Source: Pseudanabaena sp. ABRG5-3
GTDB lineage: Bacteria; Cyanobacteriota; Cyanobacteriia; Pseudanabaenales; Pseudanabaenaceae
Direction of reading: 5' to 3'
NCBI RefSeq assembly: GCF_003967015.1
Contig: NZ_AP017560.1
Location: 1,054,001-1,118,000, forward strand
DNA length: 64,000 nucleotides
The position numbers and the translations under genes are program-made. The notes under the pieces are model-generated. The model was not told where the DNA came from. It saw only the letters and a program-made list of their open reading frames with translations, and searched no databases. Shown here piece after piece: positions 7,898 through 15,613 of the stretch (position 1 is the first letter of the stretch; each line of letters starts with the position of its first letter).

Positions 7898-8764
7898 TTA
7901 TGACCATGGCAATGATCTATAAAAATCGGCGACTTTTTGAAATAACTCATCAAAGTCTGGAAGATCATCCTCTATCTCATCTTTAAGAGTGTGATAGTCT
8001 TTTTGAGCTCTGGATTTTAACTCTGGGTTCTCAAATGAATTTATATCTGGCGCAATCCCTCTTGCTTTCGATTTAAAAATCAAGGAATTCAAGATTTTTC
8101 TTCTTTCAAAACTGTCAATATCTCCTAATCTTTCGACTAGTAAGTTCAAGTCATAAACATCTTGTCTACGACTTCTATTTCTAGAAACTTGCTGTAATAA
8201 TGAGCGATACTTTTCGGCTATTAAATCTGTTAATGAATAAGCCAAAATGCCTTCTTTAAGATTTAGCTTTAAATCCTCAATATTCAGAGTTGCCTCATTC
8301 AAACTATAATCAATTGATACGGTATTCGTTGACTGCAAAGATAATAATCGCTTATGCTGAGGTGTCCCTTTATATGCATATCCTACTGTCATCCTAATTG
8401 ATGGATATGTAGATTTACTATCCTTTGGCTGTAACTTACTACTTTGTACACGACAATCTAAATCATAATCTAATTCCTCAACCATCTGGGCTAGGCTACT
8501 ATCCAAAGATTTACGAACGCCATCTTCCGTAATCTCACCACCGAGTTGTCTCTCCGTAGAAAAGTCGATATCTTTTGTAAAGCGATGACTTTTATATCTT
8601 ATCGCTAACAAAATGCCTCCTTTCAAAATCATGTTTGCTTTTAAGTTACTATCTGAAGCAATTGCCGACAAGATAGTATGTACAGCCTGACGAAACTCCT
8701 TATTACTTGTAGTTGATGCCTCTTCAACCCAGTCTTTGATATCATATTCCTCGATTTCACTCAT
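7898..8764 (-). CDS. AbiEii/AbiGii-type nucleotidyltransferase toxin
   Basis: A 288-residue protein of the AbiEii/AbiGii family, the toxin of type IV toxin-antitoxin and abortive infection systems; characterised members are nucleotidyltransferases that modify tRNA or other RNA. The catalytic core is visible as MILKGGILLAIRYKSHRFTK followed directly by DIDFS, that is, the GG motif and the DxD. A second conserved stretch, DLIAEKYRSLLQQ...RRQDVYDLNLL, gives the family's K and D residues. Start ATG at 8764 overlaps the abiEi stop by one base (TGATG), so the two are translationally coupled. It is the second gene of the module. No frameshift is seen, so it is probably functional. Confidence 0.88.
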   Translation of the reverse strand: MSEIEEYDIKDWVEEASTTSNKEFRQAVHTILSAIASDSNLKANMILKGGILLAIRYKSHRFTKDIDFSTERQLGGEITEDGVRKSLDSSLAQMVEELDYDLDCRVQSSKLQPKDSKSTYPSIRMTVGYAYKGTPQHKRLLSLQSTNTVSIDYSLNEATLNIEDLKLNLKEGILAYSLTDLIAEKYRSLLQQVSRNRSRRQDVYDLNLLVERLGDIDSFERRKILNSLIFKSKARGIAPDINSFENPELKSRAQKDYHTLKDEIEDDLPDFDELFQKVADFYRSLPWS

Positions 8765-9666
8765 CAAGCACTATTCCTGAAAATATTCAAAGAGATTTTC
8801 CATTTTTCTGACCATTCGGGAGAGTAATCTGAGCTTGAATCAATCTTTCTCGATCCACCCCTTTGAGCAAATGAAGACCAGCCATTAATAATCTCATTAT
8901 TATTAATACCTAAACGCTCATTCAAAATATAGCCTGCCCTAACCTTATCGATAGGCTCTCCATTTTTATCAATATCATCAGTTATCAATCTGAGATATTT
9001 TTCTCCATATTCATCAAATACATCCAATACATGATTGATCCCTCCACACAGTTCAGGGTTTCTTAACATATCAAGGAATGTCCTTCCTATAGTCGAAACT
9101 CTAAGCGATCTTCCTCTAACATTTTTATATGATCCCAAATGCTTGGAACTCAGGCAATGAATCTCTGTCTTATCAATCTTATTCATGTTTGGTCTGACTA
9201 ATCTTGGCAACCCATGCTCATAATAGCTTTCAAAATCATCGCCCAAATCTTTCTGCATTTTCTCTTTTGCTAAAGATCGCCAAGTATTATTCGGAGGGGA
9301 AGATATAAATAATTTTTTTGGCATTCGATCAGTTAAACCATGATACGACATGGCACTTAAATGAGAGATATAGCAAAAAGGGTCAACTGTACAGGCTATA
9401 TCTTCAGGATCGCCATTAGATCGACCAAGAAGAGTAAAAATCTTGGGGAGAGTTTTATGAGGAAACAAAACCCCTTCATCTATTAATAGATTTAAGTATT
9501 TAGAAATATCTGCTTTTTCCGCAAAGTCCTTCTGAAGATTTACAGGTTTATCATCATAAACCTTGCTTCGGTATATTTTGTTTACAGTTAATCCAAACTG
9601 ATATTTAGAGATGATGGGCTGATCTAAATTACCAAGTGATAATGTGATTGCTTTGATGGCATCCAT
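8764..9666 (-). CDS. AbiEi-type antitoxin / transcriptional regulator
   Basis: A 300-residue protein of the AbiEi family, the antitoxin partner of AbiEii; AbiEi proteins have an N-terminal winged helix that represses their own promoter and a C-terminal domain needed for antitoxicity. Seen here: the YLNLLIDEGVLFP / FTLLGR N-terminal part and the AbiEi signature HLSAMSYHGLTDRMPKKLF, then a RTFLDMLRNPELCGG segment typical of the family. It precedes abiEii with a TGATG overlap. A perfect 65-bp palindrome starts 25 bases upstream of its ATG and is a candidate operator. The lower G+C and absence of HIP1 sites in both genes suggest acquisition by transfer. Confidence 0.85.
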   Translation of the reverse strand: MDAIKAITLSLGNLDQPIISKYQFGLTVNKIYRSKVYDDKPVNLQKDFAEKADISKYLNLLIDEGVLFPHKTLPKIFTLLGRSNGDPEDIACTVDPFCYISHLSAMSYHGLTDRMPKKLFISSPPNNTWRSLAKEKMQKDLGDDFESYYEHGLPRLVRPNMNKIDKTEIHCLSSKHLGSYKNVRGRSLRVSTIGRTFLDMLRNPELCGGINHVLDVFDEYGEKYLRLITDDIDKNGEPIDKVRAGYILNERLGINNNEIINGWSSFAQRGGSRKIDSSSDYSPEWSEKWKISLNIFRNSA

Positions 9667-10092: not shown

Positions 10093-10323
10093 ATGCAATA
10101 CACAATTCTCATTCAATGGTCTGATGAAGATAACTGCTTTGTTGTCTTTTTACCTGAATTTACAGATGTGATGCAACCTTGCACCCACGGAAATACTTAC
10201 TTAGAAGCAATTCAAAATGCTCAAGAAGTGATTGAACTGTTAGTAGAAACTGCTATAGAAAAAGGCGAACCATTGCCCAAGCGCCAAAAGTTTCAAACAA
10301 TTCCAATTTTGCAAGCTGCATAA
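10093..10323 (+). CDS. HicB-family antitoxin-like protein (orphan)
   Basis: A 76-residue protein with the HicB partial RNase-H-like fold pattern: a Y-x-I-x-x-x-W-SDEDNCFVVFLPEFTD first strand pair, HGNTYLEAIQNAQEVIELL helix, and a proline-rich tail ending in FQTIPILQAA. HicB proteins neutralise the HicA mRNA interferase, but no hicA lies on either side, so this is a solitary member. It lacks the C-terminal DNA-binding domain of longer HicBs. A related protein is at 51901-52122. Its role without HicA is unknown. Confidence 0.8.
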   Translation: MQYTILIQWSDEDNCFVVFLPEFTDVMQPCTHGNTYLEAIQNAQEVIELLVETAIEKGEPLPKRQKFQTIPILQAA

Positions 10324-12931: not shown

Positions 12932-14014
12932 ATGAATAAAAAAAACTATCGATTGCTATTTCTATCTACTCCCGTGGGCGCATTGGGTTCGGGAATTGGA
13001 GGAGGTGTAGAACTAACGCTTCAGAATGCCGCAAAGGCGCTCATGGCAAAAGGGCATGAAGTGGAAATCGTTGCTCCTGAAGGTTCGGTTACCAATGTCA
13101 CGAAACTGACCCAAATCTCAGGTAATAGTCAAGTTTCCGCCCAAACTCAAGTTGGAACAGATATGGTTGTCTTGCCTCAAAATTCTGTTCTTGAAAATAT
13201 GTGGAGTTATGCGAGGGAAGTTCAAGATCAGTTTGATTTATTATTCAATTTTGCCTACGATTGGCTTCCTCTCTATCTCACACCTTTCTTCCATCGCCCG
13301 ATCGCCCATTGGATTAGTATGGCATCCCTTTCACCTGTAATCGATGAAATGGTTAGTAAAACTGTCAAACTTTGCCCCAAATCGATCGCTGTGAATACTC
13401 GTGCCTGTGCGAATACTTTTCGTGATGGCGATCGCTTGATGATTATGGGCAAAGGCATTGATGTGACCCAATATAATTTTGTAGCAAAGCCTGAAACCCC
13501 TAGTCTGGCATGGGTGGGGCGCATCTCTCCTGAAAAGGGGCTAGAAGATGCGGCGGAAACTGCTCAAGCGACAGGTTTACCTTTACGAGTGTTTGGATTA
13601 ATTCAAGATCAAGACTATTGGCAACAGATTCAAACCGATTTCCCGAAAGCAGAAATCTATTATGAAGGATTTTTATCTACCCATGATTTACAGCAAAAGT
13701 TAGGACAATCGACTGCTTTGTTAATGACACCACGATGGATCGAGGCCTTTGGTAATGCAGCGATCGAAGCCTTTGCCTGTGGAGTGCCTGTGATTTCCTA
13801 TCGTAGTGGTGGACTGACGGAAATTGTGCGTCATGGCAAAACAGGATTTCTGGTGGATATGGGAAGTGTCGCAGGACTGATTGAGGCGGTTTCTCAGTTA
13901 GATCAAATCGATCGCTTTGCCTGTCGTCAACAATTAGAGGCGGAATATTCTCTCGAAGTATGGGGCGATCGCTTAGAGAAATGGTTTGAGCAGCTCATCA
14001 CCAATTACAAATAG
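12932..14014 (+). CDS. GT4 glycosyltransferase, pteridine glucosyltransferase-like
   Basis: A 360-residue retaining glycosyltransferase of the GT-B fold. The N-terminus LFLSTPVGALGSGIGGGVEL (residues 9-28) with TLQNAAKAL resembles the cyanobacterial UDP-glucose:tetrahydrobiopterin glucosyltransferase family, which makes the pterin glucosides of cyanobacteria. The donor-binding half has WVGRISPEKGLEDA and the E-x7-E region EAFGNAAIEAFACGVPVISY. The start ATG 12932 follows AAGAATAAAGAG. It is convergent with the GAF protein gene, with stop codons adjacent. The pterin assignment is inferred from the N-terminal motif; another sugar acceptor is possible. Confidence 0.72.
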   Translation: MNKKNYRLLFLSTPVGALGSGIGGGVELTLQNAAKALMAKGHEVEIVAPEGSVTNVTKLTQISGNSQVSAQTQVGTDMVVLPQNSVLENMWSYAREVQDQFDLLFNFAYDWLPLYLTPFFHRPIAHWISMASLSPVIDEMVSKTVKLCPKSIAVNTRACANTFRDGDRLMIMGKGIDVTQYNFVAKPETPSLAWVGRISPEKGLEDAAETAQATGLPLRVFGLIQDQDYWQQIQTDFPKAEIYYEGFLSTHDLQQKLGQSTALLMTPRWIEAFGNAAIEAFACGVPVISYRSGGLTEIVRHGKTGFLVDMGSVAGLIEAVSQLDQIDRFACRQQLEAEYSLEVWGDRLEKWFEQLITNYK

Positions 14015-14530
14015 TCAAACATCTATAACTTCGCTTTGGATCGAGGGTGCTGCCGATAGCCCTTGAGAATATAAACGCATGGATGTAATGTCCGAAGATT
14101 CCCATTTTTTTACATTCTGACAATGATGCGCCACCAATAATCCCCATAACTTGCCATTATTCAGTACAGGGGCTACTAAATTAGAGCGAACCTGCAAACT
14201 TCTGAGGAAATCACGGTGACAATCGCTAATAGGAGCAGTTTCAATATCATCTGCCCAATAAATGCGTCCTGCCATATACAAATCGGCATATTCGCGTTTA
14301 AAACACTCATCAGCGCCTGTAGAACAGATGATTGAATATTTATGATCACTCAAAGCCTCAAATGTTACCTGCCCCTTCCAATGAGAATAGAAATAATACA
14401 AAGCAACGCGATCGACATCAAGAAACTGCCTTAGCTCATGCAAAGCATCATGAACTAACGAGTCTTGTTGTAATTTATTGGTAATGCGAGTTAAAACTGC
14501 ACTCAAACCACGATTGGCAGGATTCATCAT
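14015..14530 (-). CDS. Stand-alone GAF domain protein, DXCF cyanobacteriochrome-like
   Basis: A 171-residue protein made of a single GAF domain. It matches bilin-binding cyanobacteriochromes in detail: DRVALYYFYSHWKGQVTFEA (residues 40-59), then Asp74-Glu-Cys76-Phe (the DXCF motif), YADLYMAGRIYWADDIE, then Cys104-His105 (the canonical chromophore cysteine) and LVAPVLNNGKLWGLLVAHHC to residue 137. The two cysteines are 28 residues apart, as in the dual-cysteine blue/green photoreceptor TePixJ. No kinase, GGDEF or other output domain is fused, so it would act in trans or as a bilin-binding module. The start is ATG 14530 (MMNP). Bilin binding is inferred from motifs and not proven. Confidence 0.78.
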   Translation of the reverse strand: MMNPANRGLSAVLTRITNKLQQDSLVHDALHELRQFLDVDRVALYYFYSHWKGQVTFEALSDHKYSIICSTGADECFKREYADLYMAGRIYWADDIETAPISDCHRDFLRSLQVRSNLVAPVLNNGKLWGLLVAHHCQNVKKWESSDITSMRLYSQGLSAAPSIQSEVIDV

Positions 14531-14764
14531 TGCAGGAGATAAAAACTAGATCTGAGAAAGATTAAAAATCTAATAAACAGCGATTAAATGGCGACAAATC
14601 TTGAGATTAAGTTTCGTGCCAATGTATTGATAGTTTTTTAATTCCTCAACTATTCTCTTTTTCCTAATTTTAAACTTGAGTGCAGTACATATCACAGCGC
14701 TTAGTAAAAAAAATAGCAAGTATACTGAAATTTGAGTTCATTTACTTAGTCACGAGCCGAGATC

Positions 14765-15613
14765 TTGCCCAAAGAATATCAAGCTACAGGAATTAATCTC
14801 AAGGGAATGCCCTTGGGTGAACACGATCGCCTATTGACAATTCTGACTAAAGAGCATGGCTTGATCAAGGCGGTGGCGGCTGGGGCAAGAAAACATCGAT
14901 CCGCAATGGCGGGAAGATCGGGGTTATTTGTAGTGAATGATCTGCAAATTTCAGTGGGGCGATCAATGGATCGGGTAAAAAATGCGGAAATGGTGCAATC
15001 TTTTGTGGGTTTGGGGAAAACTCTGGCTAAGCTTACGGCTGCACAATATTTATCGGAACTGGCTTTAATGCAGGCGCTATCAGCTCAACCCCAAGAAGAA
15101 TTATTTTTAGTATTAGTTGAGCATCTCAATCGCATTCAGAATGCCGAAAACAATCATGTCTTGCCTTGTTTAGCGCATGGTACTTATCACTTGCTCGCGA
15201 TCGCAGGTTTTGCCCCGCAAGTACATAGTTGCTGTATCTCCCAACGCCCCGTCATTGCCAATCGTGAGCTTCCCAAATGGAAGGCTGGATTTAGCATTGT
15301 CGGTGGTGGGGTGATTAATCTGGAAATAACCGATCCACCTCATGGCGGTAATCCGAATAGCGATCGCTCTAGCAATGGTATGGAGATCCTCAGTAGTGAC
15401 GAGATCCACAATCGGATTAGCCATTACCTAACAGCCACAGAACTCTTAGCTATTCAGGAACTCGCACAAACCGATTTAACCGATAATATTTTAAAGTCAC
15501 ATACAACAGCTTGGCTGACAGTCGAGAGATTGTTACGAGCCTACGCGCAGTATCATTTTGATAGACCAATCCAGTCTTCGGCACTGATTGACAACTGTTT
15601 TTTTAATATATGA
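14765..15613 (+). CDS. recO: DNA repair protein RecO
   Basis: RecO works with RecR and RecF to load RecA onto single-stranded DNA coated by SSB. The 282-residue chain begins PKEYQATGINLKGMPLGEHD, with the N-terminal OB-fold pattern DRLLTILTKEHGLIKAVAAG, then the helical C-terminal domain (YLSELALMQALSAQPQEELF...CLAHGTYHLLAIAGFAP). The zinc cysteines of some RecOs are only partly kept (HSCCISQR). The start is TTG at 14765. It overlaps the downstream MFS gene by four bases (ATGA), so the pair is probably one operon. Confidence 0.9.
   Translation: MPKEYQATGINLKGMPLGEHDRLLTILTKEHGLIKAVAAGARKHRSAMAGRSGLFVVNDLQISVGRSMDRVKNAEMVQSFVGLGKTLAKLTAAQYLSELALMQALSAQPQEELFLVLVEHLNRIQNAENNHVLPCLAHGTYHLLAIAGFAPQVHSCCISQRPVIANRELPKWKAGFSIVGGGVINLEITDPPHGGNPNSDRSSNGMEILSSDEIHNRISHYLTATELLAIQELAQTDLTDNILKSHTTAWLTVERLLRAYAQYHFDRPIQSSALIDNCFFNI

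What the first reader, a model, noticed from the sequence alone, without database searches (positions are those of the whole stretch)
14015..14530. Stand-alone dual-cysteine cyanobacteriochrome-like GAF domain
The 171-residue protein has Asp74-Glu-Cys76-Phe and Cys104-His105, 28 residues apart, and the surrounding GAF pattern of DXCF-type blue/green photoreceptors. Known members are parts of kinases, cyclases or taxis receptors. Here there is no output domain, so signalling would have to occur by protein interaction or the domain could have another role such as bilin binding or storage.
Basis: partly seen in the sequence, partly recalled or inferred. Interest (0 to 1): 0.78.

Follow-up and report, generated by a model that had tools for sequence, protein, structure and literature searches.

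The report
Conserved stand-alone two-cysteine light-sensor domain
A small cyanobacterial gene encodes a bilin-type light-sensor domain with nothing attached to it; it is one member of a widespread family of such free-standing sensors, of which a likely relative in a laboratory cyanobacterium is already described as a photoreceptor, but what it signals to is unknown.

Summary
The protein aligns without gaps to the DXCF cyanobacteriochrome TePixJ, DECF on DPCF and CH on CH. A model (mean pLDDT 88.5) fits TePixJ 4glq with Z 22.1 over 149 residues. Two-Cys GAFs are common: 10 of the 14 other own-genome GAFs examined have DXCF. The architecture stands out. A profile finds the family in 57 of 386 cyanobacterial genomes (14 families), one copy each, in open frames of 165-213 aa; every listed weaker hit lies in a frame of 383 aa or more. 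The family is one clade, support 100/100. Cys76, Phe77, Cys104 and His105 are 76 of 76, Asp74 62 of 76. So this is a conserved output-less group, not a local truncation. In genome family f7 the gene follows ndhH in 13 of 30 loci, the place of alr3356 in Nostoc PCC 7120, already reported as a cyanobacteriochrome and FurA target. Most likely a blue/green-type photoswitch that signals in trans; bilin binding, light response and partner are not shown. New member of a known kind.

The parts
14015..14530 (-). 171-aa stand-alone DXCF-type cyanobacteriochrome GAF protein (ATG at 14530, stop codon at 14015-14017)
   Evidence: ORF; Pfam GAF 1.5e-17; TePixJ in sequence and fold; family
14300..14311 (-). 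DECF motif, residues 74-77; Cys76 is the second cysteine, aligned with the DPCF cysteine of TePixJ
   Evidence: Cys76 and Phe77 76 of 76, Asp74 62 of 76 in the family
14216..14221 (-). Cys104-His105, canonical bilin-attachment cysteine and its histidine
   Evidence: both 76 of 76
14531..14764 (.). intergenic stretch shared with the divergent recO; would hold the promoter of the GAF gene (not mapped)
   Evidence: the GAF gene lies beside a divergent recO and transporter gene in 14 of 14 Pseudanabaena rows read, which are 13 places, the window included

Best explanation
It is a free-standing DXCF-type cyanobacteriochrome. Cys104 attaches phycocyanobilin (probably turned into phycoviolobilin) through ring A. 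Cys76 forms a second, light-breakable bond to the bilin's C10, giving a blue-absorbing dark state that switches to a longer-wavelength form in blue light. With no output domain in the chain, the light state must be read by another protein that binds the GAF domain, as the BLUF protein PixD is read by PixE. Shown here: gene, predicted fold, pocket residues, invariant cysteines, a one-copy family that is free-standing wherever it was found. Inferred from homology: bilin binding, colour, photoconversion. Not shown: partner and pathway.
For: Gapless alignment with TePixJ through both cysteines; Z 22.1, rmsd 2.0, 149 residues with 4glq on the better model. Cys76, Phe77, Tyr81, Tyr85, Arg89, Cys104, His105 and His135 are 76 of 76, Asn117 74 of 76. 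One copy per genome in 57 of 386 genomes; family scores 196 to 283 bits against 169 and below for the rest; none of the 57 fused to anything. One clade at 100/100 with a long stem. Purifying selection. The genome has one bilin reductase match (PF05996) and two haem oxygenase matches. Passages in PMC11284453 state that domains with both cysteines typically bind phycoviolobilin and switch blue/green. [quoted passage not shown]
Against: No bilin binding or light response was measured. Asp74 of DXCF is replaced in 14 of 76 family members (Ser 8, Glu 4, Arg 1, Asn 1), although present here. No neighbour recurs across families in a way that suggests a partner. 4 of 26 genomes of the genus lack it, 3 of the 23 that are at least 90% complete and at most 5% contaminated, so it is dispensable. 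A fold match shows no function.
Confidence: 0.7

Rival explanations
1. Bilin carrier, store or scavenger: the GAF binds phycocyanobilin to keep it soluble or hand it on, and light plays no part.
For: No output domain and no partner gene in the neighbourhood; the genome has genes to make bilins; in Nostoc, alr3356 and pcyA both rise when furA is switched off (3.94- and 2.01-fold), though FurA bound only the alr3356 promoter in vitro (PMC4788461, section 7 read).
Against: Covalent attachment would be an odd design for a carrier (inference). The second Cys, which serves colour tuning, is 76 of 76.
Confidence: 0.12
2. Bilin-bound screening pigment or redox-sensitive thiol sensor: the protein absorbs or reacts, but does not switch as a signal.
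For: Free-standing, conserved Cys pair plus a near-invariant third Cys137 (73 of 76); FurA control of the presumed orthologue.
Against: The wider bilin pocket (Tyr85, Arg89, His105, Asn117) is kept too, and Cys137 is kept in 36 of 38 multi-domain GAFs, so it is not special to this family.
Confidence: 0.1
3. A photoreceptor tied to NDH-1 (complex I type) biogenesis: in genome family f7 the gene often sits by ndhH and a Methyltransf_28 gene, the family of the complex I assembly methyltransferase NDUFAF7 (recalled).
For: ndhH directly upstream on the same strand in 13 of 30 f7 loci, a Methyltransf_28 gene within six genes in 16 of 30, both in 9; identities by HMM of one representative each.
Against: Seen in one family only. 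Gaps to ndhH are 232 to 654 bases in those 13 loci and the Nostoc gene has a FurA-bound upstream region of its own, so no operon is indicated. In the window's genus the neighbours are recO and a transporter gene.
Confidence: 0.05
4. Broken remnant of a larger receptor in this one genome.
For: 171 aa without output domain.
Against: 57 of 57 family members in the sampled genomes are of this size; the tail after Trp143 is 23 to 30 residues in 76 of 76; dN/dS 0.025-0.078 in 5 of 6 comparisons.
Confidence: 0.01

Closest known systems
Alr3356 of Nostoc sp. PCC 7120 (cyanobacteriochrome; FurA target)
   Same: Next to ndhH by locus number: alr3355 is ndhH (PMC8147232, table passage); alr3356 is 'similar to phytochrome' and is called a cyanobacteriochrome with a chromophore-binding GAF domain (PMC4788461, passages and section 7). 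Family members lie right after ndhH, same strand, in 13 of 30 f7 loci. PMC4788461 cites Ma et al. 2012 (FEBS J), on seven blue-absorbing GAF domains of Nostoc 7120, for it.
   Different: Orthology is inferred from gene order; the named sequence was not compared. Ma et al. 2012 is not held: that its abstract reports dark states near 420 nm and photoreversal in all but one domain is recalled, and whether Alr3356 is one of the seven was not seen.
TePixJ GAF (DXCF cyanobacteriochrome, PDB 4glq, 4fof, 3vv4)
   Same: Gapless alignment over both cysteines and the pocket His, Arg and Tyr; Z 22.1 over 149 residues.
   Different: TePixJ is annotated as a methyl-accepting chemotaxis protein; 27% identity; it falls outside the family clade; its Trp five residues after the DXCF cysteine is Tyr81 here.
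PixD (BLUF photoreceptor without output domain, recalled) with PixE
   Same: Works like: a blue-light sensor that signals by light-dependent binding of PixE (PMC5812497, passage).
   Different: Flavin BLUF domain, unrelated fold (recalled); not a member.

Membership tests
DXCF cyanobacteriochrome (CBCR) GAF | GAF domain of CBCR type | tested here: met
   Pfam GAF 1.5e-17; best solved relatives are CBCR GAFs and proteins engineered from one; Z 22.1 with 4glq
DXCF cyanobacteriochrome (CBCR) GAF | Canonical cysteine followed by His or Tyr | tested here: met
   Cys104-His105 aligned with TePixJ CH; 76 of 76 in the family
DXCF cyanobacteriochrome (CBCR) GAF | Second cysteine in an Asp-Xaa-Cys-Phe motif | tested here: met
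   DECF in this protein. In the family Cys-Phe is 76 of 76 but Asp only 62 of 76
DXCF cyanobacteriochrome (CBCR) GAF | Covalent bilin and blue/green-type photoconversion | not testable with these tools
   Needs expression and spectroscopy
Stand-alone DXCF family (Alr3356-type, name given here) | One copy per genome, short open frame, no fused domain, in one clade | tested here: met
Orthologue of Nostoc PCC 7120 Alr3356 | Same locus next to ndhH, and sequence orthology | tested here: inconclusive
   Gene order fits in 13 of 30 f7 loci and by locus numbers in print; the named sequence was not compared
Output-less photoreceptor with a dedicated partner (PixD-PixE type) | Conserved partner, light-dependent binding | tested here: inconclusive
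   No partner gene emerges from neighbourhoods; binding cannot be tested here

The most novel reading that the evidence does not exclude
Cyanobacteria share a single-copy, output-less cyanobacteriochrome lineage that acts as a diffusible blue-light switch, docking on an unknown common partner encoded elsewhere in the genome. I found no such layout described for this photoreceptor class in the listings and passages of my searches, which cover open-licence PubMed Central only.
Probability: 0.45. Interest if true: 0.6.

Novelty: new member of a known kind. Interest (0 to 1): 0.38.

Why it matters
Most cyanobacteriochrome domains studied come from large kinases, cyclases or receptors (recalled). 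A naturally single-domain, dual-cysteine family found in 14 genome families with a nearly fixed C-terminus is a natural minimal photoswitch and raises the question of what an output-less bilin sensor talks to. The question can be tested in Nostoc PCC 7120 through alr3356.

Tried and rejected
Truncated receptor: rejected by the family. Neighbourhood as a guide to the partner: a first script and a fuller one (70 rows; L091 and L181 are one place, L018 and L082 the same contig stretch) found recurrent neighbours almost only inside a genus or family: recO and a transporter gene in 14 of 14 Pseudanabaena rows; ndhH, Methyltransf_28, dehydrogenase or a GATase_3 gene in parts of f7; an OmpR-type response regulator in 3 of 3 f14 loci; a uvrA-like gene (read by eye) in 6 of 10 f11 loci. 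A histidine kinase (cluster c19) recurs on the other strand in 2 f7 and 2 f11 loci; too few to build on. Some other clusters that span families are common gene types and were not followed. Plasmids: one match at E 1e-25 or better, 34% identical and annotated as a PAS domain protein. NCBIfam gives no name (best hit 31.7 bits, cut-off 1040). The upstream DNA alignment was uninformative, and its L019 row was taken from the wrong strand. Papers on stand-alone CBCRs: (in one search, 15 of 34 listed; listings and a few passages seen, not the texts) gave none on this family; alr3356 is named in one held paper. One search was a faulty alignment (minus-strand loci misread), replaced.

Limits of the counts: the tree used 23 of the 52 family rows and 38 of 40 other GAFs (two shorter than 136 aa left out). 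Searches scored at most 9 first-look candidates per genome and sampled 386 genomes from a larger group, so 57 of 386 is a lower bound; weaker matches beyond the listed ones were not seen. The 14 own-genome GAFs are the best 14 of 27 other matches. Whether the family descended vertically or spread between lineages was not tested.

Full report
What is there. The ORF at 14015-14530 is on the minus strand and gives 171 residues. It carries DECF at 74-77 and CH at 104-105. Pfam calls it GAF (1.5e-17). A glycosyltransferase gene ends at 14014 and recO begins at 14765, both on the plus strand, so it stands alone. The genome has 28 matches to it at E 0.001 or better, itself included; the other 27 lie in open frames of 400 to 2092 aa.

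Is it a dual-cysteine photoreceptor domain. Phmmer puts cyanobacteriochrome GAFs, and fluorescent proteins engineered from one, first among solved structures. Against TePixJ (3vv4) the printed alignment runs without gaps, DECF on DPCF and DCH on ECH. AlphaFold2 on a 74-row alignment gives mean pLDDT 88.5. VIA-align places the model on 4glq, the blue-absorbing form of TePixJ, with Z 22.1, rmsd 2.0, 149 of 149 chain residues; CBCR and phytochrome chains fill the 50 rows shown, and the top rows (Z 22.9 to 22.1) are tied. I had no coordinates, so distances to a bilin were not measured. The genome has one Fe_bilin_red match and two haem oxygenase matches.

How special is the motif. Not very. Of 14 other GAFs examined from the same genome (the best 14 of 27 matches), 10 carry DXCF, all 10 with a cysteine at the canonical place. 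What is special is that the domain is free-standing.

The family. By single-sequence search 57 of 386 sampled cyanobacterial genomes, in 31 of 142 genera, have a match at E 1e-38. By profile, the same 57 score 196 to 283 bits, one per genome, every one in an open frame of 165-213 aa. The next match has 169 bits, and all listed weaker ones lie in open frames of 383 aa or more (at most 9 candidates per genome scored, further weak matches not listed). The 57 fall in 14 of the numbered families. In the window's genus 22 of 26 genomes have it, at 266 bits or more against 153 or less for the other listed matches. A tree of 23 family rows, 38 multi-domain GAFs and TePixJ puts the family on one branch with support 100/100 and length 0.8. 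So the lack of an output domain is a shared, kept feature; vertical descent against spread between lineages was not tested.

Conservation. In 76 non-identical family sequences Cys76, Phe77, Tyr81, Tyr85, Arg89, Cys104, His105 and His135 are invariant; Asn117 is 74 of 76. Asp74 is 62 of 76, replaced by Ser 8, Glu 4, Arg 1, Asn 1. Residues that are at least 90% conserved in the family and under 35% in the 38 other GAFs include Asp23, Tyr46, Tyr48, Gln54, Thr56, Gly72, Ala82, Glu97 and Phe108; that some of them form a shared docking face is my inference. The chain ends 23 to 30 residues after Trp143 in all 76, 24 in 52. dN/dS is 0.025 to 0.078 in 5 of 6 comparisons, one saturated, three of the five with dS above 2.

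Surroundings. In Pseudanabaena the gene is divergent to recO and a transporter gene (14 of 14 rows, 13 places). In f7 (unnamed; presumably Nostocaceae, from the link below) ndhH lies just upstream on the same strand in 13 of 30 loci, and a Methyltransf_28 gene lies within six genes in 16 of 30 (one representative of each identified). No gene recurs broadly across families.

What is known. In Nostoc PCC 7120 alr3355 is ndhH (PMC8147232, table passage). Alr3356 is listed as similar to phytochrome; its transcript rises 3.94-fold when furA is switched off and FurA binds its upstream region in vitro (PMC4788461, first part of section 7 read). The paper calls it a cyanobacteriochrome with a chromophore-binding GAF (passage) and cites Ma et al. 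2012 on seven blue-absorbing GAF domains of that strain. That paper is not held. The matching order and orientation make Alr3356 the likely orthologue, which I could not check by sequence.

Mechanism. Most likely a blue/green-type photoswitch (typical DXCF behaviour: PMC11284453, passages) that works in trans, as PixD does with PixE (PMC5812497, passage). The first half rests on strong homology, the second on the absence of any output domain. Storage or screening roles remain possible.

Noticed in passing
family alignment, column 74: The Asp of DXCF is lost in 14 of 76 family members while Cys-Phe never varies; the Asp may be dispensable for the second bond in this family.
   Followed up: partly
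14324-14326 (residue 69, minus strand): Cys69, seven residues before Cys76, replaces a conserved Gly in 5 of 76 family members including this one.
   Followed up: no
L067:5387-10067: In several f7 genomes the GAF gene lies between ndhH and a Methyltransf_28 gene (the family of a complex I assembly factor, recalled).
   Followed up: partly
10093-10323: HicB-like antitoxin gene (Pfam HicB_lk_antitox 3.6e-8); I did not look for a HicA partner.
   Followed up: no
8764-9666: 300-aa minus-strand ORF with no Pfam match at 0.001.
   Followed up: no
L084:3055-3810: In 3 of 3 f14 loci a response regulator gene follows the GAF gene on the same strand, 94 to 114 bases on (one representative is of OmpR type).
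   Followed up: no
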